Of a stretch of DNA of 37,435 nucleotides, positions 4,570 through 30,087 are shown in pieces (within the stretch, counting starts at the first letter, position 1; each line of letters starts with the position of its first letter). Below the pieces are notes generated by a model. It was not told the DNA's origin. It saw only the letters and a program-made list of their open reading frames with translations, and ran no database searches. The stretch comes from a virus. The position numbers were made by a program, and so were the translations under genes. The DNA lies in the IMG/VR virus record IMGVR_UViG_3300042317_000195, positions 1 through 37,435 of that record; one strand, given 5' to 3'.

Positions 4570-5204
4570 TACAAAGCCTCAATTAATTTAATAACACCAT
4601 TATCCATAAGGATACCATCTTCATAAACCATTCCTCTTACAACATCAGTATCATATTTTACATTCATTTTAACATCATCTTTATAATACATTATTGCGCC
4701 TTGTGCAGCTTGTGTACGTAATGCAGGATAAATGTACGCTGTCATTGTCTCAACATTGAGTGTAATACTTTGAGTAAGCATATAAACCTTTCCAACACCT
4801 CCAAAATTAATAAAAGTGCCCATTGGAATGACTTTACCAATATGTGGAGAATTTGCACCAACACCCTGTAAAGGTATTTGAGTATTAGTTGCTGCAGTTG
4901 TTGTTTTAACAGTTATATCAGGAGTAGCTGTTCGTGAATTTTTTGCACCCATATTTTGGGGCATTAATATTTTAAATGTTTGTGAAAACCCTTTTACAAT
5001 TAAATTAGTCATTAACTCGTGAGCAGTATTATTCTGGGGAGCCAGTTTAGTTTCCAGCTCCCATCTTTGTGCCGCTCTTTGATATAATGCTCTTTTTAAT
5101 GAAAGGGTATCTGAAACAAACATTGGTTGGTTGCTTCTAATCGTCATTGGAACAACGAAAGTTGCAATCAAACTACCTGCGTCATTTAAGATACCGTATG
5201 CCAT
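4569..5204 (-). CDS. Distal tail protein-like
   Basis: 211 residues, directly after the tape measure gene with a TAATG overlap at 5204. The N-terminal half contains SLKRALYQRAAQRWELETKL, similar to the 'R...QRWE...L' segment seen in many small proteins that form the first ring of the tail tip. The C-terminal half is beta-rich. In siphophages the gene after the tape measure usually encodes the distal tail protein joining tube and hub. Family recognition is moderate; the placement carries much of the call. Confidence 0.55.
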   Translation of the reverse strand: MAYGILNDAGSLIATFVVPMTIRSNQPMFVSDTLSLKRALYQRAAQRWELETKLAPQNNTAHELMTNLIVKGFSQTFKILMPQNMGAKNSRTATPDITVKTTTAATNTQIPLQGVGANSPHIGKVIPMGTFINFGGVGKVYMLTQSITLNVETMTAYIYPALRTQAAQGAIMYYKDDVKMNVKYDTDVVRGMVYEDGILMDNGVIKLIEAL

Positions 5205-11200: not shown

Positions 11201-14200
11201 TGGTAAATTTATTTTTGAAATATCCCCAGTATAGTCAGCTGCTTTTAATTTAGTAGACACATCAGTCATACTATTTGTATATGAATTTCTTGCAGCAGCA
11301 TCATTTATTTTATAATTGCCTTCTGATGTCAAATCTTTTACTTTTTGTACAGAATTTTTTAAGCTTTTAGATACATTTTTGGCCTTGCCTTCATCTAAAA
11401 AGCCTGTTGCAGTTGTTGTATCTGTTAAACTAGTTTTAAGTTGACTAAGCTTATCTAACTCATCTAATATATCTCTGTTAACAGTAGGATCTGCTGCAGG
11501 ATTTTGATAAACTTTTCTTGCTTCTTGGACAGTTTTAATAAAGTCTCTGCCAAGTTCTTTAGAGGCATCAGTGTATAGAAAACCCTTTTCGTCCGGAATT
11601 CTAAAATTCTTGTAATCCATCCCAGAATCTATTTTAGACGTTTTATCAGAAAAGACTGAACTTACCTCATCGAAAAATCCAGATCTTGGAACGAGATCTT
11701 CACCCAATGTTGCAAATATATCTTTAGCTTGTCTTTGAGTTGTTAGATACGCAATCTCCATTGCGCTGTTGAACTCAGATGCTGCTGTTTTGAACGCATC
11801 TGAAGTAGCTTGTGAAACCGCTCCAGTAGGCCCTTTTCGTTCTTTATATTGCGCTACCGCTGCTGCATCTAAAGCATCTTTTTTCTCGGTTAAAATCTTT
11901 TCATCATTAGGAAGTAAAGCTTTAAAGTTAATCTTCTCGCGCTTGTCAGAAACAGTCAAGCCAGAAAGGCCTAACTCATTCATCGTTGATGTTTTCAATC
12001 CTGTTTTAAGTTCCACTGGATCTGTTTTAAAACCTAAAAGCGCTTTAGAACTGTCAATTAATCGTTGAATTTGGTCCATCATAGAACCATCACCAACCAA
12101 GAAACTAATGAGAACGCCTGTGGTTAAAACTGGAAATGCAATCATGCCACCAAATCGCGCAAGCCCAATACCTTCTGCAAGACCTACAAGAGCATTTTTG
12201 AAGGCACCCATGAAATGAAAGCCAACCATTGTGCCTAATGCTACACCATAAGAAGCGCCTTCTTCTCCACCTAATTTATTTCCAATAGCTGCACCTATTG
12301 CTCCGCCGCCAATTAACGCAGTAGCTCCCCCAATACTTGCCGCAACACCTGCTCCAAATTTACCTGCTGCACCAAAAGGATTTCTACGAGGATCATTTAG
12401 CAATTCATTTTGATGCGCTAAATACGTATTCATTGTTGCAGGGATTATTTGAGCGCGTTGTTCAATAACTGGCATTGCATTAAATTTTGCTGTACGCTTA
12501 GCAATATTCTCAGGAGTCCCTGTACCCATCGCAGCATACGTTTGCGCTGTTGCAGGTATTCTTAATCCAGCACGTTCTTCTGTCGTCATTTCCGCAAATC
12601 TAATAGAAGATTTATTACGTACTTTTTCGGCCATTAGAGATTCTTTAGTTGGCGCTTCTCCTATAGATCCACCCATCTCAAATAGATTAGTTGCTTGTGC
12701 AAGTTGTCTTTTCTTAATTGCGCGATTAATTTGAAAAGCCGTTAAACCAGCCGAAAGTGCAAACGGTAATACTGGCATTTGAGTGTCTAGCATTGGCATT
12801 GTGCCAAGATAATCTACACCAAATCTCTTATCTGTTCCAAAAAGTCCAGGTGGTTTTTCACCTTCTTTTCTAGTATCAGATAATCTATAACTAGCAAGCT
12901 GGCCTACTGCAAAAGCTAATAAAGGTAATACAGCATATCTTAATTTTGCAATATTAGTTAGCGCTGTGCCTGTCATTGAAACAGCTCTGAACAATCTTTG
13001 CCAATTACTTATTTGGAAAGTTGTTACAGTTAATGCAGAAGAAAGCATTGACGCTTTTGCTCTACCGCTTATTGTATCTAAAGATTTATAATAAGCTGCA
13101 TTGGTTTTCATTCCCTCTGCTAGCCCCGCTCTAGTTTTATCTAAAAACTCTTGTAAAGTACTTGACTTTAAAAGGTCTTTACCGCCAGATTTTATATCAG
13201 GCATCATGCGTGCAAAGAAAGGATATTTAGCAGTGCCACTAGGCCCTGTTGCCATTAATTCTTTCTCTAGTAAACGGAAATTAGGTTTGATTTTTCTCAA
13301 TATTTGCGGAAAGGCTGATGCTCTTTCCTTCGCCGCAGAATCAATAATTGCATTACCAATTGTTTTAAGATTAGTATAGCCTTTACGAATGCCTGCAAAA
13401 TATGATAAGCCGCCAGCAGTAAATGCATTTGAAGAAGACTTCATTTCTACTGTTTTCCAAATACCTGACATACTTGCAAGCATTGCATTACCAAACACTT
13501 TAGCACTCGTAGGTGCAAGTACTTCCGGTAAAAAGAAAATACTTCTGAAAGCAGTTGCTAATAAACCTTTTGAGATTACTTGAATAGACTGACCAAGTCT
13601 CACTAACGGCGGCAAGTTTCTTGCTGGCCACTCTTGTGCTGACATCGTTACAAGGTCAATCATATTTCTAAAGAATGCACCGATTAGCTTACCTGACCAT
13701 GTTGCAGTAAATTTGGTAACACTGCCCAGTATGGCTAGAATCCCTGTTTCACCTGCCAGGAATTTTATTAATTGCTCTCTTAATGGTTTTATTATAAGTA
13801 ATGCATTCCATGCAATCCCTGCGCCTATTGCAACTTTATTTGCAGAGGACATATCAAACATTGAGTCTTCTGTCTTAGGCTTTGGTTCAGGATTCAGCGG
13901 TGTAAATGGCGTCATTGGCTGAGTTTTATTAGGTTCCGCTGCTTGCGAAACGCTGCTAAATAAAGCGTAAGCCAACACTCCTACCATCATTGCACGTCTG
14001 ACTGTCATAGATTTTAGTATTTCACCCATGATATTGTTAGACTTTTTGGCGTTTGCAACTGCGTTATTAATGCCCTTGTCCCATGAAATCAATGTTTTCC
14101 CAAATGTCCCTTTAGGATCAACTGCACCACTTCCAAAGAATAATTGATTTAATAAGGATTTATTAGAACCACCTTGACTATATTTATTTACATTTGAAGC

Positions 14201-17200
14201 AAATTCAGAAAAGAATTTCCCTGTGCCAGATCTTAATTTATCAAACTCAGAAGGACTTGGCGTTAATCGCAGCAATCCGTCACTTCCTCTCGCCCAAGCT
14301 CTTGGACCTTTTTGAAAGAATCCCATTAGTCCTGGTGTAAGCGACGATGTCATTGAAATAAGACCTTTCTTTATTGGCTCAATAATTTCTGACTTAATTC
14401 TAGCTACGCCATGATCACCTGCGAACAGCATGTACATTGCGCCAACTTCTAAATATGCTTTGCCTATTGGATCATTTCTAAACGCACCATCAAACACTCC
14501 CATATAGTCTGCAACCAATGCAGTAGCTGCAAGCGCTTGTGTTTTATATGCACCACCGTACACGTTCTTTGAAATTGAACCTGCAACATTAGGGCCTTTT
14601 GGGGCATATTTTCCAGTAAAGAAATCTGTAGTATTGGTGAACATCTTATTGATGCTCATCATTTGTTTAGAATAAATACCAAAAGCTGCTAAAGTAGAAG
14701 TGAGTGTTTTACCTAAAAAGAATGCGCCTATTATACCAGCCGCAGGTGCTAATGAAAATAAGTCAAATATTTTCATAAGGCCGCTATATAGCAAACCTAC
14801 AACAGGAAGCCCTGACGCTAATGAATTAAAGAAATTTGAAAACGCACTTATTGTTTCACTAACAATGCCTGCATTAGAATCTGAAAATAAATTATTAATT
14901 ACAGTAGCTAAAGAGCCACCTATGAATTTACCAATCTTTTCACCAAGAGAGGCATCAAATACGATATCGGTTACACCGATACTTAAGGAAATGCCCGATA
15001 CTAATGCAATAGTTCCAATTGCCTTGCCAAGCAATGTATTCATTAATGCTGCAGGCAAGAAGGCAGTTGCTATTGAAGCCGCCAATAATGCTGATCCAGC
15101 AATAAATATATTATCCATTTCTGCAAGAGCAGCTTTAGCTGAAGAAATTAATGGATCAAATGCATCTCTAAAATTACCACGACCCATTTCTTTTAAAAAG
15201 GATTTAGTAGACTGGCTATTAAACATTGCTTCAATAGCATTAAATGCATATTTAGCTGCTGTGACAAGTACTGTAAATACACTACCTAATCCAGGGACAA
15301 AACTATCTAATCCGTCTGTTATACTCTGAATTTCATCACTAAAATCTAATTCTTTTAATCGGCTAAGAATTCCACCAATTTTATTATATACTGTTTCAAA
15401 TAATCTTACAATACCTGCAGCAAACTTATTTAATCCACTTTTAGAATTATCCCATAACGATTTTGAAGTTTCTACTACATTTTCTACTGTATCTGTCCAC
15501 CATGAATGTCCAATTACTGCATCATAAATCTTAAAGAAGATATCAATTACACTATCACCAAAATCTTTGATGACGGAAATAACGGATTTTAATTTTTCTG
15601 TTTGTAGTAATATACCATCAAACAAGTTTGTAACGCCATCTCCCAAGCTTATTTTAGATAGTGCATTAGCAATTCTATCTATCCATTCTTCGATAGTATT
15701 AAAAACTTCAGAAAAGAGCATTGCTACTTGAGTAAGTTCATCACTCAAAAATGTATAAATGTCAAGTTCCATTAAAAACTTAGTGGATTTTTCTACACCA
15801 ATAAGAACTTGATTTAATGTATTAGAAACAAAAGCTGTGGTCGTATCTACAAGACTCTTATCAGAAACAAATAAAAAGTCTAAAGATACAGGTATAATCC
15901 ATTTTAATATTTTAGCAAAAGGTTCAAATATAGAACTTATTGCACCAAATCCAGAATTAGACAATTCTTTATAAAGGGTGTCCATAAAGCTGCTTGCAAG
16001 ATTTAATACATTTGCAAAAATTCTACTTAATGTACCTAATATTGGGGAAAATCCATTTAAGAAATTATTAATCATCCCATCTGTATCAAATGAAACAGCT
16101 GCAGCGGCTAAGAACTCAGAAGCCAGAGTAATGATATCGCCAAGTAATAATTTAAAATTATATTTGAAAAATGCTAATGTAGAAGTCCATCTAAATACTG
16201 TTTTAGAGGCATCTGCAACGCCTTCTGAGAATGCCAACCAGAGATCTTGTCCTGCAAATTTAAATACTTTAGTTAGGAATTTTACTTTTATTCTAAAGTC
16301 AATCCCCATTCTTTTAACTTCAAGAGTTAATAAATCGTTTATATCTGTAAAGTTTTGTTTGAGCGCCCCTGCAGGAAAAGCAAAAATTCTTGAGAATAAA
16401 TTGCCTTCTATTGGCGCTTTAATCAACTTACCTAGTCTAATCCTATTTCGTTCGTATGCGCCAAATATATTGTTAAAAGAAACAGTAAGCAATTCTGCAG
16501 TATTAGAGATGAACGTTGCAATTCCTGTTTCAACTAATGCTCCTGAAAAAGCCATAAATAGTCTTTTGACTCTTATGATAGTAGCAGCAAGACTGTATTC
16601 TAGTGAATTTGAAATATTTTTAAAAGTACTAGTAATGCTAGCGCCAATAATAAATGCAGAATCGGCTGTAGTACCTAATGTATCGGCCAGTTTACTGAGA
16701 GTTTGCCCAGTCAGATTAATTGCGCCTAAGCCCTTTGCAAAAGAATTTCCAATTAATTCAGCTTCTTCAGTAATTCGCGTTAACCCTGATAAAACTGTAG
16801 GTATTACGTTATTAAATTCTTTATCAATTACCTTAGCTTGCTCTTTAAAAGACCTTACTAGAACTTCAGTTGTTAATTTTCCTTCTGCTGCTTGTAACCG
16901 CATTGCGCCTAAGGTTAAGTGCATGCTGTCTGCAATAGCTTTTGCAATACGCGGAGTTTGCTCCATTACAGAATTTAACTCTTCACCTCTCAATGCACCT
17001 GCTGAAAGTCCTTGCCCTAATTGTATAATAGCGGCTTTCGCGGCCTCAGGACTTGATCCAGAAATTGCAATAGCTTTTTGTATAGTAGTTGTGAGTTTTA
17101 ACAAATCAGCTGAAGATGTTTTAACATCTCCCATCGATCTGCCAAAAGAAGCAAATACAGAAGCAGTATCTGAATATGATGCGTATGTTTCTTTTGAAAC

Positions 17201-17479
17201 ATCTCTTAGTTTTCTTTGAACTTCTAATAGCTCATATGAGCGCCCTGTTACAAGTGCTATTTGATTTTCTACTTGTTGTAAATCACTTGTAATTGTTTTA
17301 AATTGGTCAAATAATTGACCCGCTGTGAATGCTGTTCCAAGGGCAACAAAAGCATTTTTAAATCCATTAGTCAACCCATCTACACTTGATGAGATATTTT
17401 TAACTGCAACATTTACTTCGTCTAGATTCTTCTGCGCTTTCCTTGTATTAGCTTCGACATCAATTACGATACCCGACAT
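5204..17479 (-). CDS. Giant tail tape measure protein with embedded FlgJ-like hydrolase domain
   Basis: About 4091 residues, among the larger phage tape measures. I use ATG 17479, because GGAG lies 8 nt upstream; a TTG two codons earlier (17485) is also in frame. Residues about 60-250 match the tape-measure N-terminal domain (LRGEELNSVMEQTPRIAKAI, then AAEGKLTTEVLVRSFK). Several hydrophobic segments follow (near 790-830, 1160-1180, 1710-1740, 1775-1796). A long helical/coiled region covers about 1750-2800. A FlgJ-like domain lies at about 2832-2967. The C-terminus is Gly/Ser-rich with three copies of a GTGTSDSIP module. The protein sets tail length and is normally ejected before DNA. At about 0.15 nm per residue it predicts a tail near 0.6 micrometres. 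Confidence 0.97.
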   Translation of the reverse strand: MSGIVIDVEANTRKAQKNLDEVNVAVKNISSSVDGLTNGFKNAFVALGTAFTAGQLFDQFKTITSDLQQVENQIALVTGRSYELLEVQRKLRDVSKETYASYSDTASVFASFGRSMGDVKTSSADLLKLTTTIQKAIAISGSSPEAAKAAIIQLGQGLSAGALRGEELNSVMEQTPRIAKAIADSMHLTLGAMRLQAAEGKLTTEVLVRSFKEQAKVIDKEFNNVIPTVLSGLTRITEEAELIGNSFAKGLGAINLTGQTLSKLADTLGTTADSAFIIGASITSTFKNISNSLEYSLAATIIRVKRLFMAFSGALVETGIATFISNTAELLTVSFNNIFGAYERNRIRLGKLIKAPIEGNLFSRIFAFPAGALKQNFTDINDLLTLEVKRMGIDFRIKVKFLTKVFKFAGQDLWLAFSEGVADASKTVFRWTSTLAFFKYNFKLLLGDIITLASEFLAAAAVSFDTDGMINNFLNGFSPILGTLSRIFANVLNLASSFMDTLYKELSNSGFGAISSIFEPFAKILKWIIPVSLDFLFVSDKSLVDTTTAFVSNTLNQVLIGVEKSTKFLMELDIYTFLSDELTQVAMLFSEVFNTIEEWIDRIANALSKISLGDGVTNLFDGILLQTEKLKSVISVIKDFGDSVIDIFFKIYDAVIGHSWWTDTVENVVETSKSLWDNSKSGLNKFAAGIVRLFETVYNKIGGILSRLKELDFSDEIQSITDGLDSFVPGLGSVFTVLVTAAKYAFNAIEAMFNSQSTKSFLKEMGRGNFRDAFDPLISSAKAALAEMDNIFIAGSALLAASIATAFLPAALMNTLLGKAIGTIALVSGISLSIGVTDIVFDASLGEKIGKFIGGSLATVINNLFSDSNAGIVSETISAFSNFFNSLASGLPVVGLLYSGLMKIFDLFSLAPAAGIIGAFFLGKTLTSTLAAFGIYSKQMMSINKMFTNTTDFFTGKYAPKGPNVAGSISKNVYGGAYKTQALAATALVADYMGVFDGAFRNDPIGKAYLEVGAMYMLFAGDHGVARIKSEIIEPIKKGLISMTSSLTPGLMGFFQKGPRAWARGSDGLLRLTPSPSEFDKLRSGTGKFFSEFASNVNKYSQGGSNKSLLNQLFFGSGAVDPKGTFGKTLISWDKGINNAVANAKKSNNIMGEILKSMTVRRAMMVGVLAYALFSSVSQAAEPNKTQPMTPFTPLNPEPKPKTEDSMFDMSSANKVAIGAGIAWNALLIIKPLREQLIKFLAGETGILAILGSVTKFTATWSGKLIGAFFRNMIDLVTMSAQEWPARNLPPLVRLGQSIQVISKGLLATAFRSIFFLPEVLAPTSAKVFGNAMLASMSGIWKTVEMKSSSNAFTAGGLSYFAGIRKGYTNLKTIGNAIIDSAAKERASAFPQILRKIKPNFRLLEKELMATGPSGTAKYPFFARMMPDIKSGGKDLLKSSTLQEFLDKTRAGLAEGMKTNAAYYKSLDTISGRAKASMLSSALTVTTFQISNWQRLFRAVSMTGTALTNIAKLRYAVLPLLAFAVGQLASYRLSDTRKEGEKPPGLFGTDKRFGVDYLGTMPMLDTQMPVLPFALSAGLTAFQINRAIKKRQLAQATNLFEMGGSIGEAPTKESLMAEKVRNKSSIRFAEMTTEERAGLRIPATAQTYAAMGTGTPENIAKRTAKFNAMPVIEQRAQIIPATMNTYLAHQNELLNDPRRNPFGAAGKFGAGVAASIGGATALIGGGAIGAAIGNKLGGEEGASYGVALGTMVGFHFMGAFKNALVGLAEGIGLARFGGMIAFPVLTTGVLISFLVGDGSMMDQIQRLIDSSKALLGFKTDPVELKTGLKTSTMNELGLSGLTVSDKREKINFKALLPNDEKILTEKKDALDAAAVAQYKERKGPTGAVSQATSDAFKTAASEFNSAMEIAYLTTQRQAKDIFATLGEDLVPRSGFFDEVSSVFSDKTSKIDSGMDYKNFRIPDEKGFLYTDASKELGRDFIKTVQEARKVYQNPAADPTVNRDILDELDKLSQLKTSLTDTTTATGFLDEGKAKNVSKSLKNSVQKVKDLTSEGNYKINDAAARNSYTNSMTDVSTKLKAADYTGDISKINLPALEGSSEFRGYLDRLSVTAKLLKKPIGDKERQSLMDAKAQDFKIVEMLIKQADESTKSTVTQLGDFESELGLTLPASLKKVSDPASLNPLIDQLKDSVRNKLYSEMRVGELYQAPTEGLSPYSDERKRIDAENEIRAKEYNARKEAITKGTANYNLSRMRSVKTASEIQFKDPGAFQDLLKNGSFGIDVRQLLAGSGMEETRKVIKEIQDLQNQKEIGLLDPAVDFEKLNDINNNLDDIVEKYKTIDMSTSSLLDGLKNVEIRGLAGSSYREMQDRGIEIARLRRDLAKGKDKMSKSDFDAKSAELDQKIYENQQASLSARMGTSEAMQSTFAAAGWNTASIQEAVGLQTLDSYNQLAITLERLKEAQKNAEPGLALGYNAQIASVERAMDSLKNHSFETGQTIQNTFSGVGLSSASDFKRVPESAVKEFYSLGREIEAVQYLMTQPMSVGQFNALEDKLITLEERSKALNSTYASISTKFASVNEVFGTSLSNMDFVSLGSGLTNALAKTAQSLKTQLADEMEKGFLSVKAEGLIVALDELSTKGEYLKFFADLAKNTRESFKAGFQSSLDKIKAALPDLEISMYRLASMKDQGKGLAKEAFDISAIETLLGKGNLLSDSQKEIISGYDKYNAAEILTKLKDDFAKTGGDFAKALETPLESSTTATNNLVTSLGDLGIKVDALATAFSNPPTPAATVPAVPTVPDTNILSPYLPPSTNTLTGPRSNSWLNEIPQKVEAVTKSTVELMAEASKSLGLDPRVLEAISNLETHNREKVREAKGGGSSHNLFNIKAGKSWKGNVSARPATDDPSYFKAYSTDAASILDMVALMKSKRYAAAMANPKDTAAVLQGLQDAGYAGESKDWADLILKSLGAKSTKKPAKATTSNKEIDPQAIANVAIRKQEITSKYKSEIDKFSEIRMNFGSDIRGALVKAGTIDQDLANQLGDESVNYLETLARRIANQTDYIKTAASNNQPVDEYIAALDKTLTSKTAYLEGFNALRDLKVSPQNQADEFRKGSKNNISLYLSRFGKMSDEAVGYLDKIQMKQAEALTDQLVDAETRLKAAKDENKETVDLQREVDNLNDKLKDLGDAAQTAAKMAEDAGKTFAANTTGTFKDAFKGMLLGEADKDKTPFQTFVKKLKTGLKDQLAEMFTNSMMNSFELGKGGSITKLLEKGGKLTSSAFSGIGNGIKDTLSGNMTWDKFSGGISSWWNDLTSSTDTANKTPEVRFDDATVRFDKTVDKIIAAVNGAGVGGTAKESSSALGAVSALGPTALKGIAALTKGGMSKEDIKTFTESSSLNKLSLDAIGSPSTADGFSEGALASIGSTKQGAQALEIAAAQKSETSWWSDMFSSKEDVSQYASGLHMPGETNTYGEALPETSWLDDIGKFFTDIKWSELFSWLPGMATGGQVSGAGTGTSDSIPTLLSNGEFVVNAKDTKKNRHILEAINNGSIVRRAAGGFMGALGTVTPVLGMGANLINQFTGNDANSKLLKAAEHLERAAKALENAVGNGGLGGATDAMQNASKQTKDSADSFSSFFKGSESGPNANGVTNGYAADGTDLAYPLTGMISGADMNAPSAITQGIADTSGYGSGTIEPLLPASNPASSGFIGPRQGADQQGFLDSIADSFSNFFSKEGAGGSIWSSFTELLGGADGKGGLFGGLMHMFDGTGAGASTGGGGGILGSMSGGDGIMGFFGKIGNFFGNIGGAATGGSISGSGTGTSDSIPTMLSNGEFVVNAAAASKNLGMLHAINSGKVQHHNLGAFLGPLGSIMSIASSAKGFADGPAEAAGGAATGGIMGMISKFLGMFSGLFGKLFGGAGGGLSSMFGNLFGGGGASPLGAAGDASMANMFSGSSLGLSFARKGGLFLAGGGQVSGPGTGTSDSIPAMLSHGEYVINAAATARHRDLLHQINSGRVPQFAAGGIVDAAAPVMTVPIAGNIKQSSSISASNKGQQVINLNITGDISRQTKSEIYKMMPSIADGVNSQNKEKGYRR
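5420..5578 (-). repeat. Tape measure C-terminal module, copy 3 of 3
   Basis: 53 residues from residue 3968 (GGQVSGPGTGTSDSIP, MLSHGEYVINA, LLHQINSGR, AAGG). It is followed by the last about 70 residues of the protein, which include a beta segment (VINLNITGDI). Confidence 0.85.
5903..6058 (-). repeat. Tape measure C-terminal module, copy 2 of 3
   Basis: About 52 residues from residue 3808 (GGSISGSGTGTSDSIP, MLSNGEFVVNA, MLHAINSGK). It keeps the core of copies 1 and 3 but lacks the final AAGG. Confidence 0.85.
6815..6973 (-). repeat. Tape measure C-terminal module, copy 1 of 3
   Basis: 53-residue module starting at residue 3503 (GGQVSGAGTGTSDSIP, then LLSNGEFVVNA and HILEAINNGS). Copies 2 and 3 lie at 5903-6058 and 5420-5578. 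The GTGTSDSIP...SNGEFVVNA pattern is common once near the end of tape measures; three copies are less usual. Confidence 0.85.
8578..8985 (-). other. FlgJ-type glucosaminidase/muramidase domain inside the tape measure
   Basis: Residues about 2832-2967 of the tape measure. The order of motifs follows FlgJ peptidoglycan hydrolases: SLGLDPRVLEAISNLET with a candidate catalytic Glu at residue 2862, then GGSSHNLFNIKAGKSWKGN, an FKAYST segment, KRYAAAM, and LQDAGYAGESKDWADLIL. FlgJ domains cut glycan strands of the Gram-negative wall. In tape measures such domains are thought to open the peptidoglycan during DNA entry. The HNLFNIKA and Glu landmarks are seen directly; activity is inferred. Confidence 0.85.
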
Positions 17480-17481
17480 TG

Positions 17482-17553
17482 TCAAATCTCCATTAAAAAC
17501 CCTTTACCAACACCATCAGGCATTAATAAAGGGGTATGATCATCTTTTATTTT
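17482..17553 (-). other. Possible -1 frame extension of the gp10-like gene
   Basis: The 97-residue protein stops at CCA AAA TAA. In the -1 frame, reading resumes through a protein-like run (KDDHTPLLMPDGVGKGF) and ends at TGA (17482-17484), two bases before the tape measure ATG. The run of A at 17549-17552 could allow a slip, or could be the site of an indel that truncated the gene. It may also be chance; no second line of evidence exists in the window. Confidence 0.3.
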
Positions 17554-21395: not shown

Positions 21396-22619
21396 TTAAG
21401 AATGGAATACAGGTAAGATACCTAATGATAACGCAGATTGTGTTTTACGTGTCCATACACCGCGTGTGCTAGCAATAACTGAAGCTGCAGTAAGTGCTTT
21501 GGTAACACCACCTTCAACAACACCCATATAATCAGCATCAGATGGGAATGCAGTTTTAGAACCATTCCAGTCGTAACCAGCAGGTGCCAATACATAACCC
21601 CAACGATTCCAAATAGAAGTTGTACCACCACCTTTATATTTGTTAGCATCACGGTAAACTTCAGTTGCATCAGGAACCATTAATTGTTCCATAGCGATTG
21701 CGCCAGGCAATACGATGAATGAAGTTTTGGTACCAACTACGTCAATACCAGCACCGCCATTGATTTTAGCTAATTCAGCAGAGGACAATGATTGGTTAGC
21801 ACGTGTAGTGATTAAACGGAATTTGCCATTAAAGATTGTGTTAAAGTTAATATTACCATCAACAACAGTTGTTTCATCAACGAAGTTTGCACTACGGAAT
21901 GAAGCCAAAGTTTCAGGAGACACAACTAAGTATGCCCACTCTGGTTCATAATCTTTAAATGCCATACCAAATGCATTCAAGAAGCCTTCAGCACGTGAAG
22001 CACCTTGATACGCATAGTTAGTAGCACCAGCAGGTGAAATACCATTGCCAGTTACAATTTTGTTTGCGCCTAAGTCAGCATAGAAGCCAAAAGCTTTATC
22101 TGCAGGGTCATTAGTAAATGTTTGACCGCCAAGACCAGTTACACCTGAACCAGTAGCAGCGCCATTCAACAATTCAGAAACAGCAACGCCTTTCAATACA
22201 GATAGAATAGCATTGTGTTCGTCTTGAGCGCGGGTTTCGCCGAAGTCACGACCAATTTTAGCTAAACCGTCTTGTTGTGTTACAATTTGTTGCATGTTTA
22301 CTTTTTCAGCACCATGCGTACGAACTGTTTTAATGTATGTACTGTAGTCAGTATCATAGTTTGTTTTAGTACCATCGGTAGCATCAGTTAGTGACGCAAC
22401 GTTAATGGTTGGATTTAATGGTTTCATCCAACGCATTTGACCAATAAAGGTTTCTGTGCTGGTATCAATTTGTGGGTTAGAAGAAGTAATGCCTGTACCA
22501 GATAATTTCTTAGCATTGGTATAAGCTTCGTCGCTATAAGCGCCAATAGCTTCTTGTAACACATAGTTATTCGTTAGACCTGAAGGTCCAATCGGGAGAG
22601 TTGTAACTGAAGCACCCAT
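21396..22619 (-). CDS. Major capsid protein
   Basis: 407 residues, ATG preceded by AAGGA. It follows the scaffold gene and precedes the connector. The sequence has an N-terminal arm, a long helical segment around QDGLAKIGRDFGETRAQDEH (spine-helix region), then an alpha/beta half with AYLVVSPETLASF and SFIVLPGAIAMEQLMVPDAT, and aromatic/Gly-rich C-terminal strands (WNRWGYVLAPAGYDW). These fit an HK97-fold coat protein. Its codon and amino-acid composition (few Cys, many Ala/Gly/Thr) fits a highly expressed coat. No capsid protease is seen nearby, so maturation without cleavage by a dedicated enzyme is likely. Confidence 0.85.
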   Translation of the reverse strand: MGASVTTLPIGPSGLTNNYVLQEAIGAYSDEAYTNAKKLSGTGITSSNPQIDTSTETFIGQMRWMKPLNPTINVASLTDATDGTKTNYDTDYSTYIKTVRTHGAEKVNMQQIVTQQDGLAKIGRDFGETRAQDEHNAILSVLKGVAVSELLNGAATGSGVTGLGGQTFTNDPADKAFGFYADLGANKIVTGNGISPAGATNYAYQGASRAEGFLNAFGMAFKDYEPEWAYLVVSPETLASFRSANFVDETTVVDGNINFNTIFNGKFRLITTRANQSLSSAELAKINGGAGIDVVGTKTSFIVLPGAIAMEQLMVPDATEVYRDANKYKGGGTTSIWNRWGYVLAPAGYDWNGSKTAFPSDADYMGVVEGGVTKALTAASVIASTRGVWTRKTQSALSLGILPVFHS

Positions 22620-22641: not shown

Positions 22642-23280
22642 TTATTTCCTGCGAAGTGAGCCTTCGGCAGCACGTTTAAGTACTTCCTCTTGAGATAGAC
22701 TGAATAAAGATTTATTCGATGTATCTTGAGTAGTACCACTAGAACTTGTTTGACCAGCCCCTGTCGATACTTTTGGTTTGAATAAGAAAGCGTTGTTATC
22801 GTCTTCAGAAAATTGTTTAATAAAGGTTCTAAGATCAGTTCCTGATTTATGCACCCATACACCATTTTCATTTTGTACAAGTTGCGATGCCACATCCATA
22901 TATGCCATATCCGCAGCTTTGTCACTTCTAAACGCATAACCACTAAGAATAGATTTAACTTCTAAGTCCCTAGCAAGTTCTATGTTACGTTTTGTTATCG
23001 TTTCCAATTTAGCATTGGCTTCCGCTAACTGAAGTTCATAAGCTTCTTTATGTTTTCCTTCTTCTTGAAGTCGTTTTAATTCAGCTTCTTTTTCTTTTTG
23101 TTCATATTCCGCTGCTTTCTTTAACGCTTCATCACGCTCTTTATAAGCGTTATCCAATTTGGATTTAATAGGTTTAAGAGCTTCCTGGATTTTCGAGTCC
23201 ACATCATCCACAGGAGTAGTGGGAGTAGCAGGAGGCGGAGTAATATTATCAGTTTCTTTTTGTTCGACATTTTCGGTCAT
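22642..23280 (-). CDS. Capsid scaffolding protein
   Basis: 212 residues from ATG 23280, preferred because AAAAGGA lies 7-8 nt upstream; an in-frame ATG at 23307 would add 9 residues. The protein has a Pro/Thr-rich acidic start (PPPATPTTP), then a long charged coiled coil at about residues 30-105 (YKERDEALKKAAEYEQKEKE), a helical C-terminal half and a basic end (LRRK). This is the usual design of scaffolds, with a basic tail that binds coat. It lies immediately before the capsid gene. No protease motif is present. Confidence 0.8.
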   Translation of the reverse strand: MTENVEQKETDNITPPPATPTTPVDDVDSKIQEALKPIKSKLDNAYKERDEALKKAAEYEQKEKEAELKRLQEEGKHKEAYELQLAEANAKLETITKRNIELARDLEVKSILSGYAFRSDKAADMAYMDVASQLVQNENGVWVHKSGTDLRTFIKQFSEDDNNAFLFKPKVSTGAGQTSSSGTTQDTSNKSLFSLSQEEVLKRAAEGSLRRK

Positions 23281-23316
23281 TTTAATTTCCTTTTGAGTAC
23301 AACTCATTAATATACA

Positions 23317-23355: not shown

Positions 23356-23379
23356 TTTAGGGTTAATTTAACGGGGTCT
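23356..23379. repeat. 24-bp direct repeat, copy A
   Basis: Identical to 23470-23493 over 24 bp. It contains an odd dyad GTTAA-A-TTAAC followed (plus strand) by CGGGGTCT. It lies in non-coding DNA upstream of the scaffold gene. Confidence 0.9.
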
Positions 23380-23469: not shown

Positions 23470-23493
23470 TTTAGGGTTAATTTAACGGGGTCT
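23470..23493. repeat. 24-bp direct repeat, copy B
   Basis: Second copy, 114 bp away in the same orientation. It overlaps the last codons and stop of the DUF2829 gene (23477-23698). Copy A may thus be a duplicated gene end, or both may be true regulatory elements. Confidence 0.9.
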
Positions 23494-23831: not shown

Positions 23832-26800
23832 TTATCCTATACCGTAAAATCCCCAATCATCCTCAAATTTAGTAGGATCAGGAATATCGCTTAATACATC
23901 TTTCTTTGTTAAGATGTCTGCTTCTGTTAATGTTTTACCACCGACAACTGACTTACCAGCTATAGGTATTAAGCCTTTGTCAATAGCTTCTTCCAAGTAT
24001 TGATCATATAATTCTTTAGGAAAACCTCTAGCTAACATTTCATCAAGCGTAACCTTTACAGGGTCCTTATCTAATACATTAGCGTATAATTTTCTTATAC
24101 CCTTCCGGGCTTCCAACATATCGGCTGCATTGGCGAAAAACGCATCGTGAATGGTTGACGTGGCAATTGAATTGTCTCGTCCCCAGAGATGAAAATTTTT
24201 GACCAACGTGGCGTCGTTTGAGTGATTCCCGTTAACGGCATAAGCTGTTCGTGCTTTAGTTGCGTCTGCAATGTCATTTATTTTTCCTTCAGCGTTTACT
24301 ACTTGTTCCCACCAAGTGGCTTCTGTTTTCTGTTGCACTTGAACTAAATTATTAACCCAATTACCATCTTTATCTTTGTAAACTAATCTCTCTTCAAATG
24401 ACTGAGTGAAATTTTGTTCAATAATTTTGCCATCAAAATTAACCCATGGCACGTTGGTCCATGATTTAGGTAGTTTATTAGCATAAAATACTTCAAACCC
24501 TTTTGCAATAGTTACTTTTTCAACAGGTTCTATTTTAAATATTTTAAATCCAGTACGTCTATTATCAGGCGCTTTTACACCATAAATCAAATCGGCTAAA
24601 TTACCGTCTGGTCGCCAACCATTAAATCTCCTAAAAAACTTTTCAGATAATGGTTCTCCAGCTTTCAATCCTAATATTTCACTAATTCTATCAGGTAATA
24701 CATAGCCTTTTTCACGAGTACCTAGCGCACCTGTTGCGCCTATTGATTTCCAGCTAATCGCAGATTCTGCGGGTTTTGCATTAATCAAATAATCTTCAGC
24801 AAGTCTACCAAAGAATCGTGTAAAATCTTTTAAAATAGGAACTTGTTCACTTAAATGTTCAGACATTAATTTAGCTATAGCTTGAAAGTCTTTAGGCGTA
24901 ACAACCATATCATAGCTATGAGTCATCTTTTCAACAAGGTCTTTAGTAGCAGGATCTAAGAAATAAAGTTGTTCCATTATTTCATCACCGGGATCTAAGC
25001 CTTTGTTAAATATATCTTTAACGTCTTCCCTTAATTGTTTAAGTTGCGCTGTTGTTTCAGGATCAAACTTCTCATATCTAGCTGCACGAGCAGAAATTTC
25101 ATTCAATACTTTATCACGATCACTAGCTTTTACAACTAACGTTCCTGCGTCTTTTCCAAGTACTTTTGCAAGTTTACCTTCAACATTAAGAATTCCAGTT
25201 CTTTCTCCAGCACCATAAAACGTAACCATATTTTGAGCTTTTGCAGCTTTACGTAAATCTTTTTCATTTAAGCCTAATCTTTCATTTAATACTTTAAAGC
25301 GTGGATCATTGAATGTTGCTGCTGCAATCTCATCATATAGCCGTCTTTTCTGATTTGTCGGTACAACATTGGATAACGATGCTAACTGTTTGTTCTTAGT
25401 TGTCAATGCAATAATCTGCGCACCAGATGAAGAAGCATCTTGCTCAAGAGCTAAGGCTGTTTTGTATTCATTCATAGAACCACCAGCTTTAAGGTGATTA
25501 TCTATTTTAGCCGCTTCCATAGCAAATCTCATAAATTTGCCAAGTTCCTCACCTTCAATTAATTGCACCATATCTGACTCAAGAATAGCACGTAAATCTG
25601 CAGGTTTACCTCTTAGCATTTTATTACCAAGATCTACCATTTCAGGCCACAATTTATCAGCAATTTTTTGGCGTCCAGTGAATGATAATGAATTATATCT
25701 GCCTTCAAATACATCATTTAGACCACCCATAAAGGCACCTATCTGATCTCTGAAGTTTCTATATCCATCTTCGCCAAGAACTTTTTCTACTTCAGTATTT
25801 AAGAAAGGTCTAAATGACTCTCCCGATTGCGGACTAATAAGACCACGATCATAGATCCTAGCCCGATGATCGACAAAAGCATGATTACTGAAAGCGTAAT
25901 CATTACTTCTAAGCCAATCCATAGATTTAAATCGCTCATATGCATCACCACGAGATGAGATATAGTGTTTGTATTCATTTAAATCATTATACTTTTTAGC
26001 AGCACCTCTATCATCTTCAAAGTATAATAGTTTCTGTGTAAAATCATAAAAATCATTATCAATTTTATACTTAGATTTAGATGCCCAATTAAGCGCATCT
26101 GCCATATTTTTATCAACAAATTCTACAGGAAAATCTGCAAAACTGTGAGTTGATGTAATAGGTATTCTAGTATCTTCTAAACCAAAGACACCATTATCAA
26201 TAAAATATGTCTTATAACCCTTGCGAAATACTAACTTATTCTTATCCGTTGTTACACCAACACGTAGGCCAACATCCACTTTCCGTGTGAGCTGTGAGTA
26301 TTTTTGTACACGAGGGTCAGTTACACGTATATTATATGATAAGGTGTCATAATAGGGGCCAAATAAAGCACCGCTAAGTCTGCTTTTCATTCTTCGCTTT
26401 TGAACACCATATGTTTCAACTTCAAAGAAATTATTAACATTTTTAGCTTCAAGTAGCTTCATTCCTGTTTCATACCACTTACGTCTTGTTCCATTTAAAT
26501 TAGCAAGATTGTAAAGATCACGCCCTAAGGCAATAGCAAATTGATCTCTGTCAGGCATATCAGCTAAAGATAGCCTGTGAGCAAATTTCAAATAAAATTG
26601 CTGTAATGCTGATTCTGAAATCCTCTCTTTACCATTAGGCATTCTTTTAATAACCGAAGGAATTTTATAATCAAATGTATTACGTAATTCTCTAGCTATT
26701 TTAGGCGCTACCGTATCTTCCCAATTATTCTTTTCACGAATATTTGAAATGAAATTATCATGCAAGTCTTGTAGTTGAGTTGGACCAAGTACTGGGTCAA

Positions 26801-28469
26801 TATAATTATCTTGTTTTAGTTTCTTTAACACATTGGTATCACTACGTATCTGAGTTTCAATAGCATCAGAAACATTCATTACATCAAATTTGATTTGACC
26901 TTGTACTACAGCTTTAAAGTTGTTCCACTGTTCACCATTATTTCTAAATCTAGTAAACAGTATGCGCAAGTTATCTACTACAACAGCACGCTCATTAATA
27001 CCCATTTTATCGCTAAGAGTATCATTAAAAGCTTTAATAAATTCTTTATCTTTAGACTTTAAAATTTTACTTTCTTCTGTTAATCTTAAATTATTATTTA
27101 AGACTGATGGGTTAGGTTGGTAGAGTCTGGTATCTTCGTAACGGCCTGTGACTGGATTAAATACGAGTTGGTCTTCGGTTGGCAAACTGTTGAGCACACG
27201 TGATTTGGCAGCTTTCTTGGTGTGTATGAGGGCACCGCGATAGTTTGTGAGTGATAAAGTACCATCTAATTCTCCTGATTGTAAGAGATAATAATCTTTA
27301 AGAGTTTGAACTAATTCAGGATCACCTATTAAATCATCTGGTGTCATAATAGGCAATTGCATTGCGTCTAATTTAGCTTTAGCATTTGCAAACTTCTGTG
27401 TATCATTTGGTAATGTATAAGTAGGATCAGTCATACGTCTTAACTCCTTAATTCCAATAGTGTTACCTTCTGGATTAGTGAATTGGTCAACAGTAAGTTG
27501 TCCTGATTGAAACATATTAACCTTTTTATAATCTCCAAGATGTCTTAATTGTACATCTTGTGGCTGACGCTTTAGCCAATCATTGTATGATTCTCTAAGT
27601 GGTGTGTTACCGTCATAAAAAGCCTTTTGAGTATTAGTTAAATTTTCTATATTTCGCCGTCTAACTTGTGCCACACTTTCTAAATTTGCTATATCTTTCC
27701 ATGATTTAAATACAGGAACTGTTGTAGATCTGCAATGCCAATGTGCTGGAGGAAGATGTGTTGTATCATCAATAGGGTAAATTGTACCATCTCTATGCGC
27801 ACACAGCGGGGTTGTTCGTGCGTCAAGGACAGCAACGTATTGCCATCCTTGTAACGCTTTTTCATTTGCCTTATAAATAGCATGATCAGCTTGCGAGGAT
27901 ACGGATGTTATAGCCGTTATTACCAGACCTCTTGACTGCATACGAGTTATATTATGTACATTTCCTGCACGTACTTGTAGAGCTATTTCATCTACGCTTT
28001 TTCCGTCAGCTATACCTTTACGTATAACCGCTTCTAGTCTAATTTTTTCATTCTTGGCAATACCTGACCACCCTTGTTCCATTGTACCATTTTCACTTAA
28101 TGGGTTCTTTAATACAATTTCTTCAGAGATTCTATTTTTAGGTCTTTCAGTACGCCATATTTTACCCATTGCTACTTCTACCTTTTGGTAAGCAAAAGAT
28201 AATTGATCGGAAACAAGAGATGTTAAATCTTTTTGAACAGAATTATTAATTGATTTATATGTCTTTCTTAATTCTTGATCAACTGCTTCTCTAAATCTTT
28301 CAAATCCCCGACCTGATAACTCAGCATCTTTGATTAATTTATCTAGTCTAACAACATGGCCATCTATTACCAAATCGACTTTTCCAGAAACTCTTCTTTC
28401 ATATAAACGGATCATTGCTGCGCGATCTAGTGTTTTATCGTATATTTGCGTATTACTATTAATGGTCAT
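23832..28469 (-). CDS. MuF-type minor head protein fused to a single-subunit RNA polymerase
   Basis: 1545 residues, one uninterrupted frame, ATG after AGGA. Residues about 135-255 are a MuF/SPP1 gp7-type domain: VLDARTTPLCAHRDGTIYP and LPPAHWHCRSTTVPVF (Asp216, Cys223, His243/245, Cys246). Residues about 260-600 are a helical linker without recognised family. From about 600 to 1500 the sequence follows T7/N4-type RNA polymerase: VDHRARIYDRG (D867, R871), motif A EQDASSSGAQ (D1011), motif B RKAAKAQNMVTFYG (R1073, K1077, Y1085, G1086; same spacing as T7 R627/K631/Y639/G640) and motif C TIHDAFFANAADM (H1441, D1442). All catalytic residues are kept, so an active enzyme is likely. It follows the portal gene, the normal MuF position, implying packaging inside the capsid. 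One deviation is Ala for Gly in DxxGR. Confidence 0.92.
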   Translation of the reverse strand: MTINSNTQIYDKTLDRAAMIRLYERRVSGKVDLVIDGHVVRLDKLIKDAELSGRGFERFREAVDQELRKTYKSINNSVQKDLTSLVSDQLSFAYQKVEVAMGKIWRTERPKNRISEEIVLKNPLSENGTMEQGWSGIAKNEKIRLEAVIRKGIADGKSVDEIALQVRAGNVHNITRMQSRGLVITAITSVSSQADHAIYKANEKALQGWQYVAVLDARTTPLCAHRDGTIYPIDDTTHLPPAHWHCRSTTVPVFKSWKDIANLESVAQVRRRNIENLTNTQKAFYDGNTPLRESYNDWLKRQPQDVQLRHLGDYKKVNMFQSGQLTVDQFTNPEGNTIGIKELRRMTDPTYTLPNDTQKFANAKAKLDAMQLPIMTPDDLIGDPELVQTLKDYYLLQSGELDGTLSLTNYRGALIHTKKAAKSRVLNSLPTEDQLVFNPVTGRYEDTRLYQPNPSVLNNNLRLTEESKILKSKDKEFIKAFNDTLSDKMGINERAVVVDNLRILFTRFRNNGEQWNNFKAVVQGQIKFDVMNVSDAIETQIRSDTNVLKKLKQDNYIDPVLGPTQLQDLHDNFISNIREKNNWEDTVAPKIARELRNTFDYKIPSVIKRMPNGKERISESALQQFYLKFAHRLSLADMPDRDQFAIALGRDLYNLANLNGTRRKWYETGMKLLEAKNVNNFFEVETYGVQKRRMKSRLSGALFGPYYDTLSYNIRVTDPRVQKYSQLTRKVDVGLRVGVTTDKNKLVFRKGYKTYFIDNGVFGLEDTRIPITSTHSFADFPVEFVDKNMADALNWASKSKYKIDNDFYDFTQKLLYFEDDRGAAKKYNDLNEYKHYISSRGDAYERFKSMDWLRSNDYAFSNHAFVDHRARIYDRGLISPQSGESFRPFLNTEVEKVLGEDGYRNFRDQIGAFMGGLNDVFEGRYNSLSFTGRQKIADKLWPEMVDLGNKMLRGKPADLRAILESDMVQLIEGEELGKFMRFAMEAAKIDNHLKAGGSMNEYKTALALEQDASSSGAQIIALTTKNKQLASLSNVVPTNQKRRLYDEIAAATFNDPRFKVLNERLGLNEKDLRKAAKAQNMVTFYGAGERTGILNVEGKLAKVLGKDAGTLVVKASDRDKVLNEISARAARYEKFDPETTAQLKQLREDVKDIFNKGLDPGDEIMEQLYFLDPATKDLVEKMTHSYDMVVTPKDFQAIAKLMSEHLSEQVPILKDFTRFFGRLAEDYLINAKPAESAISWKSIGATGALGTREKGYVLPDRISEILGLKAGEPLSEKFFRRFNGWRPDGNLADLIYGVKAPDNRRTGFKIFKIEPVEKVTIAKGFEVFYANKLPKSWTNVPWVNFDGKIIEQNFTQSFEERLVYKDKDGNWVNNLVQVQQKTEATWWEQVVNAEGKINDIADATKARTAYAVNGNHSNDATLVKNFHLWGRDNSIATSTIHDAFFANAADMLEARKGIRKLYANVLDKDPVKVTLDEMLARGFPKELYDQYLEEAIDKGLIPIAGKSVVGGKTLTEADILTKKDVLSDIPDPTKFEDDWGFYGIG
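23970..26672 (-). other. T7/N4-type DNA-dependent RNA polymerase domain
   Basis: Residues about 600-1500. Motif positions in DNA: DxxxR block 25830-25874, motif A 25410-25448, motif B 25206-25253, motif C 24120-24158. Between DxxxR and motif A lies about 140 residues of fingers/palm-type sequence; between B and C about 355 residues. The segment before motif C (VNGNHSNDATLVKNFHLWG) also parallels T7 (HSQDGSHL...). Replicative DNA polymerases of family A lack this motif B and HD arrangement. Confidence 0.9.
27705..28067 (-). other. MuF / SPP1 gp7-like minor head domain
   Basis: Residues about 135-255 of the fusion. It carries the family's D-R-T-x-x-x-C core (LDARTTPLCAHRDG) and the PPxHxxCR signature (PPAHWHCRSTTVP). 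In SPP1 and Mu this protein is a low-copy capsid component bound near the portal. It supplies the packaging logic for the attached polymerase. Confidence 0.9.
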
Positions 28470-28488: not shown

Positions 28489-30087
28489 TTATTCCTTCAG
28501 AGGTTTGGGTTTACCGCCTGCAGCAGCTGCTTCTGATTGCATAGCATATTGATCATTATACTTTGTTGCAGCAGGGATGATTAATTCATCTGCATTAACT
28601 TCTTGTAAAGCCGCTTCATCATCATATTCAGAATCAAGAATATCGTTTGCTTTTAGCATCTGTAACCAGACACTTCGAGGCAACAGTCCTGCTTGGTACC
28701 ACTGTGTTACTAGATTCAACCAATCAGCACCTAATGGGACTGGATCAAAATCTGCAGATAGTGTAAATACAATATCACACGAATCAATCTCTAATCCATA
28801 TCGCCAATTAATCATTAAGCACATCATTTGTTTAATTGTGCTAGAAATCTTTGTACTCAATACACTTAATTGTGCTGTTTGAGCAGCATTACGTATTTCT
28901 AATGCAACACCAGATTGTTCATTTTCTGTTGTTAGCATTCTAATGCCTAACTTAGCCATCTCATCTATTGATGATTCAATAGCTTTCTGCATATCTTGTA
29001 ATGCTTCTGTAGGTGTTTTTAGTACGTCTGCTTTGTCATCTTGGCGTAATCTTATCCAAGACCCCAATCCAGCATCTACTATTTCGTCAAATTGCTCATC
29101 AGGCATATCTGACATAATGACAGGAGTGTAAGTAGCTGCACCATAAAGTAAATGGTTACGTCTACTAATCTTATTATATAAACTAATTTCTTTATCAACA
29201 ATAGGCATTAATATTGGTGTGAGAGGCTCTATACTGCCATTCACAGGCCATGCTGGAATATGTTTTAAAGGCTCCCCATTATTAAGGATATTGTCAAGAG
29301 TATCAATTAATTCGAAATGCCCTGAAGGTAGTAATTGTTGCAGTTTTTCACCAATACCTCCCATCTTTAATGTTTGATCACCATTATCTTTAGTAGTGCC
29401 TTGATAAATTCTAATCTGATAATTACCTGAATCGTTTAACTCATGTACCCATACAGTTGGAACTCTTAAAGCGTGAAACTCATTATTTGAATAATCATCA
29501 GCATAACCTTTAACAATTACTCGTTTAAGAACTGTTTTACCAAACATATTAGTTTCAGTTGCCCAATTCACAATTGTTTCTGCTTTTTGCAAAATAGGAT
29601 ATGGTTTAATCATATCTCTGGTTTCTTTATCAAGTGCTTCAGGATTAGCTACATTAGGATAGTCTACAAAAACCCATGCACGTGAAGTCAACATCTCTTC
29701 CCATAACAGCTCATCTAAGAATGCTATTAAGGTCGAGTCATCACGCCCAATATTATTGATGAGCCAATCTTTAGCATCATCAGGCACACCATCAGGTAAC
29801 TGTATTACTGGTGCTTTTCTTAATAAACCGCCAACAAGCATTTTAGCAAATTGTGCCGTAATACCTGGCAGCTCAGCTTCTGATTTATAAAAATCATATT
29901 GAGCTTGGCTCATAGTTGTTGAAAAAGGAATTAATAGATTTTTAAATCTTATTAAATCAATATACTGGTCAATCTCTTTTACAGTACGTTCCCCATTGCA
30001 TACAGCACGTGACTTATCCCACGAAGGTTTAAGATACTCATACGCTTGACAAGGATCCGCTACTGTCTTTACGGGGCCGTATGTCAT
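28489..30087 (-). CDS. Portal protein, DUF4055-type
   Basis: 532 residues, normal portal length. The N-terminus (YEYLKPSWDKSRAVCNGERT, then YDFYKSEAELPGITAQFAK and GLLRKAP) is typical of the DUF4055 portal family. Later features include a stem/clip region and a long helical stretch (MAKLGIRMLTTENEQSG...ALEIRNAAQTAQLSVLS) before the crown. The end is Ala/Lys-rich. The portal forms the DNA channel and packaging motor dock. It lies just before the MuF fusion, the standard pair order. No terminase precedes it in this window. Confidence 0.85.
   Translation of the reverse strand: MTYGPVKTVADPCQAYEYLKPSWDKSRAVCNGERTVKEIDQYIDLIRFKNLLIPFSTTMSQAQYDFYKSEAELPGITAQFAKMLVGGLLRKAPVIQLPDGVPDDAKDWLINNIGRDDSTLIAFLDELLWEEMLTSRAWVFVDYPNVANPEALDKETRDMIKPYPILQKAETIVNWATETNMFGKTVLKRVIVKGYADDYSNNEFHALRVPTVWVHELNDSGNYQIRIYQGTTKDNGDQTLKMGGIGEKLQQLLPSGHFELIDTLDNILNNGEPLKHIPAWPVNGSIEPLTPILMPIVDKEISLYNKISRRNHLLYGAATYTPVIMSDMPDEQFDEIVDAGLGSWIRLRQDDKADVLKTPTEALQDMQKAIESSIDEMAKLGIRMLTTENEQSGVALEIRNAAQTAQLSVLSTKISSTIKQMMCLMINWRYGLEIDSCDIVFTLSADFDPVPLGADWLNLVTQWYQAGLLPRSVWLQMLKANDILDSEYDDEAALQEVNADELIIPAATKYNDQYAMQSEAAAAGGKPKPLKE

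What the first reader, a model, noticed from the sequence alone, without database searches (positions are those of the whole stretch)
23832..28469. Virion-borne RNA polymerase: MuF minor head domain fused to a complete T7/N4-type RNAP
One frame carries both a MuF signature (LDARTTPLCAHRDG, PPAHWHCR) and every catalytic landmark of single-subunit RNAPs with T7 spacing: D867..R871, D1011, R1073-K1077-Y1085-G1086, H1441-D1442. MuF proteins sit inside the capsid at the portal, and MuF fusions to effector enzymes are an established phage theme. Here the cargo appears to be a transcriptase. N4 also packages its RNAP, but as a free-standing giant protein in a short-tailed virus. A long-tailed phage delivering RNAP through a very long tube would be a distinct solution to host-independent early transcription. 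I cannot check whether this exact fusion has been described.
Basis: partly seen in the sequence, partly recalled or inferred. Interest (0 to 1): 0.96.

Follow-up and report, generated by a model that had tools for sequence, protein, structure and literature searches.

The report
Phage capsid protein carrying RNA polymerase
A widespread group of long-tailed bacterial viruses appears to build its own RNA-making enzyme into a protein that rides inside the virus head, so that viral genes could be switched on as soon as the DNA enters the cell, without the host's enzyme.

Summary
Minus-strand ORF 28469..23832 (1545 aa) joins a genuine MuF/SPP1-gp7 minor-capsid domain (1-~347) through a low-confidence hinge (~350-358) to a T7-type single-subunit RNA polymerase module (~360-1545). 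Support: Pfam, NCBIfam and PHROG hits; an AlphaFold model (pLDDT 85.7) matching T7 and mitochondrial RNAPs at 1e-18 to 1e-15; catalytic residues invariant in 48 homologues; dN/dS about 0.08. The gene sits directly behind the portal gene. The module is T7-like by sequence, not N4-like; N4-type vRNAPs match only at fold level. Over 500 viral contigs carry relatives, as do dU-DNA roseophages DSS3_VP1/PM1 (Naomviridae) and EBPR siphovirus 1, annotated only as head proteins. All 18 records of at least 56 kb that I checked also encode a second, free T7-like RNAP. Nine relatives share an oriented promoter-like motif. The best reading is a virion/non-virion RNAP pair like those of N4 and P23-45, but with the virion enzyme anchored to the portal by MuF. 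Injection and early transcription are inferred. Virion RNAPs (including one in the siphophage P23-45) and MuF-effector fusions are both known; this combination I found described nowhere in the literature I could search.

The parts
23832..28469 (-). MuF-RNAP fusion gene (putative virion RNA polymerase), 1545 aa
   Evidence: homologues
27429..28469 (-). MuF / SPP1 gp7-like minor capsid region, residues 1-347
   Evidence: PHROG 241 E 5e-62; RNAP-less MuF proteins of Pelagibacter phages match this part only
27720..28034 (-). MuF core domain PF04233, residues 146-250
   Evidence: Pfam E 1.3e-14; TIGR01641 E 5.3e-16
27396..27437 (-). low-confidence hinge between the modules, residues ~345-358
   Evidence: AF2 model of 1-690: residues 350-358 pLDDT < 50
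23835..27392 (-). single-subunit T7-type RNA polymerase module, residues ~360-1545
   Evidence: AF2 model of 350-1545, pLDDT 85.7, pTM 0.80; Foldseek to T7 RNAP/POLRMT/Rpo41 1e-18 to 1e-15
25857..25871 (-). DxxGR-type motif D867-H-R-A-R871 (T7 D421..R425)
   Evidence: invariant D, R, R in 48 sequences; HMM alignment to T7
25416..25445 (-). motif A, D1011 (T7 D537), residues 1009-1018
   Evidence: invariant; hhalign to T7
25212..25253 (-). motif B, R1073/K1074/K1077..Y1085-G1086
   Evidence: K1074, K1077, Y1085, G1086 48/48; hhalign to H4/4 RNAP; group I introns inserted here in relatives
24213..24233 (-). N1413-GNHSN-D1419, equivalent of T7 HSxD (H784)
   Evidence: N1413, H1416, D1419 invariant; aligned to T7
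24144..24149 (-). motif C H1441-D1442 (T7 H811-D812)
   Evidence: invariant; aligned to T7
28489..30087 (-). portal protein, directly upstream of the fusion gene
   Evidence: PHROG 145 E 1e-57
22642..23307 (-). scaffolding protein
   Evidence: PHROG 206 E 3e-10
21396..22619 (-). major head protein
   Evidence: PHROG 247 E 2.5e-18
23474..23491 (-). promoter-like motif ACCCCGTTAAATTAACCC, type A1 (followed by a CCCCCT box)
   Evidence: 45 copies on the coding strand vs 1 on the other in 9 relatives
23360..23377 (-). promoter-like motif ACCCCGTTAAATTAACCC, type A2
5204..17485 (-). tape-measure protein, 4093 aa (very long tail predicted), with glucosaminidase domain
   Evidence: Pfam TMP_3 E 5e-43, Glucosaminidase E 3e-11

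Best explanation
The protein is a virion-carried, T7-type RNA polymerase whose capsid-targeting device is a MuF domain. The MuF end would bind the portal during head assembly and hold the polymerase inside the procapsid, as SPP1 gp7 is recruited by its portal. On infection the fusion would leave with the DNA through the long tail, probably unfolding, and transcribe the first genes without host RNAP. Those genes include the phage's second, free T7-like RNAP, which would then transcribe middle and late genes from the conserved ACCCCGTTAAATTAACCC elements. Shown here: the fusion, RNAP fold, intact and conserved catalytic residues, portal-scaffold-capsid gene context, a second RNAP in all near-complete relatives, and an oriented conserved intergenic motif. 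Inferred: presence in virions, injection, catalytic activity, early role, and which RNAP uses which element.
For: MuF hits. RNAP hits, PDB profile alignment through the DxxGR, motif A and motif C blocks of T7 RNAP (46), AF2 model plus Foldseek. Invariant catalytic residues and strong purifying selection. Gene between portal and scaffold/MCP in the window and in DSS3_VP1. Second free RNAP in 18/18 records >= 56 kb and a T7-like replisome. Oriented motif, 45 coding-strand vs 1 opposite-strand copies; type A1 is the only such site heading the nvRNAP block in 7 of 9 genomes. SPP1 gp7 is targeted to the procapsid interior by the portal and MuF toxin fusions are proposed to be delivered at infection (PMC6316719). 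vRNAP + nvRNAP pairs are established for N4 (PMC10925440) and P23-45 (PMC10770324).
Against: No virion proteomics or enzyme assay was available. N4-type hairpin promoters were not identified. EBPR siphovirus 1 (54.5 kb, record marked partial) shows no second RNAP. R1073, the motif-B Arg, is not invariant, although the adjacent K1074 is. How a ~175-kDa protein passes a long narrow tail is unexplained, as it also is for N4. The motif-A stretch 1010-1019 has lower model confidence (block mean 70) than its surroundings.
Confidence: 0.74

Rival explanations
1. The portal-anchored RNAP acts late, during DNA packaging: tethered at the portal of the filling procapsid it couples transcriptional pausing to packaging or termination of packaging, as T7 RNAP pausing is implicated in T7 concatemer processing (own knowledge), and is only incidentally packaged.
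For: Fusion to a portal-binding protein places a DNA-binding polymerase at the packaging vertex. Early transcription could in principle be done by host RNAP.
Against: A separate T7-like RNAP is available for any T7-style packaging role. MuF proteins are known to be targeted to the capsid interior and to carry cargo thought to be delivered (PMC6316719, PMC5512222). The catalytic core is fully conserved, more than a DNA-binding anchor would need.
Confidence: 0.1
2. The fusion is synthesised late and works in the infected cell as a late-gene RNAP, or is cleaved from MuF to do so; packaging is irrelevant.
For: The gene lies in the late structural module; many phage head proteins are proteolytically processed.
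Against: The free nvRNAP plus motif sites ahead of the late blocks already provide late transcription. The fusion is kept in frame in every intact homologue including the 30%-identical DSS3_VP1 protein, which argues that co-localisation with MuF is selected.
Confidence: 0.08
3. The polymerase fold is a catalytically dead DNA-handling or ejection scaffold.
For: Inter-motif spacings differ from T7 and R1073 is variable.
Against: Both metal-binding aspartates, K1077, Y1085, the HSxD and DxRxR residues are essentially invariant. Core dN/dS is about 0.05. Homing group I introns target motif B and pre-motif C codons.
Confidence: 0.04

Closest known systems
T7-type single-subunit RNAPs (T7, Alteromonas phage H4/4, mitochondrial POLRMT/Rpo41)
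   Same: Fold, catalytic motifs, best sequence and structure matches
   Different: Those are free-standing enzymes made after infection (or mitochondrial); here a MuF head domain is fused at the N-terminus and inter-motif spacing differs
N4-type virion RNAP (Schitoviridae gp50)
   Same: Proposed job: packaged, injected, early transcription, paired with a second phage RNAP; distant fold match to N4-like vRNAPs
   Different: No profile-level sequence match to N4 mini-vRNAP; DxRxR rather than the N4 variant; 1545 vs ~3500 aa; MuF anchor; long-tailed phage; no hairpin promoter found
P23-45 gp96 tape-measure-fused vRNAP with nvRNAP gp64
   Same: Long-tailed phage, vRNAP fused to a virion structural protein, second nvRNAP, very long TMP (PMC10770324)
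   Different: P23-45 enzyme is a double-psi beta-barrel (cellular-type) RNAP on the TMP; here a T7-fold RNAP on the portal-associated MuF protein, TMP separate
MuF-effector fusions / polyvalent proteins (SPP1 gp7 family)
   Same: MuF domain with a C-terminal enzymatic cargo believed to be delivered (PMC5512222, PMC6316719)
   Different: Reported cargos are toxins and modifying enzymes; that survey states N4-like vRNAPs occur only in N4-like phages and the passages I read mention no MuF-RNAP fusion
DSS3_VP1/PM1 (Naomviridae, dU-DNA) 'minor head protein-like protein' and EBPR siphovirus 1 gp47/gp49
   Same: True homologues of the whole fusion (30% and 58% identity)
   Different: Not annotated as RNAP in their records; ESV1 copy split by a group I intron; only DSS3_VP1 among the records tested has a dCMP deaminase-family gene

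Membership tests
T7-type single-subunit RNA polymerase | RNA_pol domain above Pfam cut-off | tested here: met
   PF00940 39.7 bits vs cut-off 22
T7-type single-subunit RNA polymerase | Conserved DxxGR, motif A Asp, motif B K..YG, motif C HD | tested here: met
   48/48 invariant at D867, R871, D1011, K1077, Y1085, G1086, H1441, D1442; the G of DxxGR is A in most, G in 4; motif B Arg R1073 in 43/48
T7-type single-subunit RNA polymerase | Right-hand fold of the family | tested here: met
   AF2 pLDDT 85.7; Foldseek prob 1.00, E down to 1e-18, TM by target length ~0.5
T7-type single-subunit RNA polymerase | DNA-dependent RNA synthesis | not testable with these tools
   needs purified protein
MuF / SPP1 gp7 minor capsid family | MuF domain above curated cut-off | tested here: met
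   PF04233 55.3 vs 29.6 bits; TIGR01641 58.9 vs 39.65
MuF / SPP1 gp7 minor capsid family | Gene next to portal, before scaffold and major capsid genes | tested here: met
   window and DSS3_VP1 maps
MuF / SPP1 gp7 minor capsid family | Protein present inside the virion | not testable with these tools
   needs virion proteomics
N4-type virion RNAP | Sequence relationship to N4 mini-vRNAP | tested here: not met
   hhalign 0.3% probability; only fold-level matches to N4-like vRNAPs
N4-type virion RNAP | Hairpin ssDNA promoters | tested here: inconclusive
   short hairpins upstream of nvRNAP in five genomes showed no shared N4-like element by inspection; family motif is a different, oriented element
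N4-type virion RNAP | Injected and active before host RNAP | not testable with these tools
   needs infection with rifampicin
P23-45-type TMP-fused vRNAP | RNAP domain in the tape-measure protein | tested here: not met
   window TMP has TMP_3 and glucosaminidase as its only Pfam domains; RNAP is on the MuF protein

The most novel reading that the evidence does not exclude
A globally widespread lytic long-tailed phage lineage runs a host-RNAP-independent programme in which a portal-tethered T7-type RNAP enters with the genome, recognises the A1 elements that head the early block, and by transcribing pulls the DNA in, then hands over to its own second T7-like RNAP.
Probability: 0.3. Interest if true: 0.92.

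Novelty: new variant of a known kind. Interest (0 to 1): 0.83.

Why it matters
It would be a third architectural solution for carrying a transcriptase as part of a tailed-phage virion protein (after the N4 giant protein and the P23-45 tape-measure fusion), using the MuF anchor already known for toxin delivery. It gives a testable answer to how these phages, including the dU-DNA roseophages, start transcription. It also supplies candidate orthogonal T7-type polymerases and promoters, and a natural design rule for loading an enzyme into a capsid.

Tried and rejected
Link to dU-DNA as a general reason for carrying the RNAP: rejected for the family, as the dCMP-deaminase-type gene was found only in DSS3_VP1 among 12 records. 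Origin by duplication of the phage's own nvRNAP: not supported; the profile matches one family nvRNAP worse (E 0.06) than Alteromonas H4/4 RNAP (1e-9), although a mixed nvRNAP/T7-like profile matches well. N4-like hairpin promoters upstream of the nvRNAP gene: none evident, hairpins seen look terminator-like. The 230-aa and 103-aa in-frame inserts are not obvious inteins by eye (homologous domain at two sites, no terminal splice residues seen) and have no Pfam match. phmmer of the single protein against PDB found nothing; a profile was needed. Fold search with the N-terminal 690 residues gave no solved relative. A second promoter-like motif (CCGGAAAAGTAACCG) in G017 did not generalise.

Full report
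1. What is there. The window is a 37,435-base virus record, listed without a completeness estimate. Its major genes run on the minus strand: tail tip, tape measure (4093 aa), tail tube proteins, major head protein, scaffold, the 1545-aa protein at issue, portal, endolysin and tail spike. The finding's ORF is real, at the stated coordinates on the minus strand.

2. Two modules in one frame. Residues 1-347 match the head-morphogenesis family PHROG 241 (E 5e-62), with the MuF core at 146-250 (PF04233, E 1e-14; TIGR01641 phageSPP1_gp7, E 5e-16). Pelagibacter phages Kolga and Aegir have a MuF protein matching only this part and only 633 aa long. The polymerase therefore looks like an addition to an ordinary minor capsid protein. 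The rest matches RNAP families (PF00940 E 3.5e-10; PHROG 414 E 1e-22). A profile of 48 homologues finds T7 RNAP among all solved structures and aligns its DxxGR, motif A, HSxD and HD blocks, each weakly on its own. AlphaFold gives pLDDT 85.7 and pTM 0.80 for residues 350-1545, and that model matches T7, human and yeast mitochondrial RNAPs at 1e-18 to 1e-15 with probability 1.00. Among viral models the best hit is A0A7S5FRK7 (1463 aa, E 1e-69). By length and accession series I take this to be the DSS3_VP1 protein. T7-like RNAPs follow, then more distantly N4-like vRNAPs. The model of residues 1-690 shows a low-confidence hinge at 350-358 between the modules.

3. Is it active? Both metal-binding aspartates (D1011, D1442), D867/R869/R871, K1074, K1077, Y1085, G1086, H1416, D1419 and H1441 are identical in 48 of 48 sequences. 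R1073 is R in 43. dN/dS is 0.08 overall for the closest comparison and about 0.05 in the core for the two closer ones. Several relatives have group I introns inside the gene, at motif B or just before motif C; I read this as homing into conserved active-site codons.

4. T7-like, not N4-like, by sequence. hhalign against single sequences gives 96% (Alteromonas H4/4 RNAP), 87% (T7) and 0.3% (N4 mini-vRNAP). It would work like an N4 vRNAP in the proposed role but is not a member of that family.

5. Who else has it. Hundreds of viral contigs do: 560 confirmed in one capped scan. In bacterial genomes the full-length or near hits were two contigs of one MAG, one of which has the same length (74,179) as an IMG/VR contig. 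Named relatives are EBPR siphovirus 1 (58% identity, gene split by an intron into gp47 and gp49) and the dU-DNA roseophages DSS3_VP1/PM1 (30%), annotated 'head protein' and 'minor head protein-like protein'. All 18 records of at least 56 kb that I checked carry, besides the fusion, a separate T7-like RNAP; contigs of 36-45 kb and ESV1 (54.5 kb) showed only the fusion. A near-complete relative (74.8 kb, genes almost all on one strand) also has a T7-like replisome: family A DNA polymerase, Toprim-DnaB helicase, gp2.5-like SSB, exonuclease and ligase.

6. Transcription signals. An 18-bp element, ACCCCGTTAAATTAACCC, occurs (up to 2 mismatches) 45 times on the coding strand and once on the other in nine relatives (689 kb; none in shuffles), mostly between genes. 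The window has two copies, between the fusion gene and scaffold (23474-23491 and 23360-23377). A subtype followed by a CCCCCT box is the only such site 2-7 kb upstream of the nvRNAP gene in 7 of 9 genomes. DSS3_VP1 has a different repeated element, AATAGGGTGCGTTAAAGAAGGG-like. These are promoter candidates; which polymerase uses which is not shown.

7. How it most likely works. SPP1 gp7 is brought into the procapsid by the portal, and MuF fusions are thought to deliver C-terminal cargo (PMC6316719; PMC5512222). Phages with a virion and a non-virion RNAP use the first for the earliest genes and the second afterwards (N4: PMC10925440; P23-45: PMC10770324). The simplest reading is the same programme with a T7-fold enzyme anchored by MuF. 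Packaging, injection and activity are inferred.

8. Novelty. Virion RNAPs (N4; jumbo phages; P23-45, a siphophage) and MuF-enzyme fusions are known. The 2017 polyvalent-protein survey reports N4-like vRNAPs only in N4-like phages. Searches of the open library found no description of a MuF-RNAP fusion. The original Naomviridae paper is not held, so a mention there or in its supplements cannot be excluded. I class it as a new variant of a known kind.

Noticed in passing
L002 28901-29127; L033 13224-13459; L046 9664-9908; L016 14219-14425; L048 4471-4736 and 5490-5735: Group I introns, some with HNH ORFs, interrupt the vRNAP gene at motif B or just before motif C in several relatives; L048 carries two intron matches.
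   Followed up: partly
L021, L018, L022 (vRNAP residue ~1106) and L044, L079, L080 (residue ~1000): A homologous ~230-aa domain without Pfam match is inserted in frame at two different places of the polymerase in different relatives; a different 103-aa insert sits at ~993 in L038 and L076.
   Followed up: partly
G002, G005, G006, G015 (contigs behind L010, L032, L038, L121): The free T7-like RNAP gene is itself split or carries inserts in several relatives.
   Followed up: no
window 5204-17485: 4093-aa tape-measure protein with a glucosaminidase domain, predicting an exceptionally long tail (about 0.6 micrometre at 1.5 A per residue); the largest ORFs of relatives in this position reach 2573-4352 aa.
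   Followed up: partly
MN602266.1 (L003/L004): DSS3_VP1, a dU-DNA phage, has both the MuF-RNAP and a separate RNAP gene plus a repeated T7-promoter-like element AATAGGGTGCGTTAAAGAAGGG; relevant to how dU-DNA is transcribed.
   Followed up: partly
G017 48382, 51507, 56388: A second repeated intergenic element, CCGGAAAAGTAACCG, essentially in one relative only.
   Followed up: partly
window 32583-35999: 1138-aa tail spike-like protein (PHROG 4636) with many short AIGxxA/NTAxG-type repeats.
   Followed up: no
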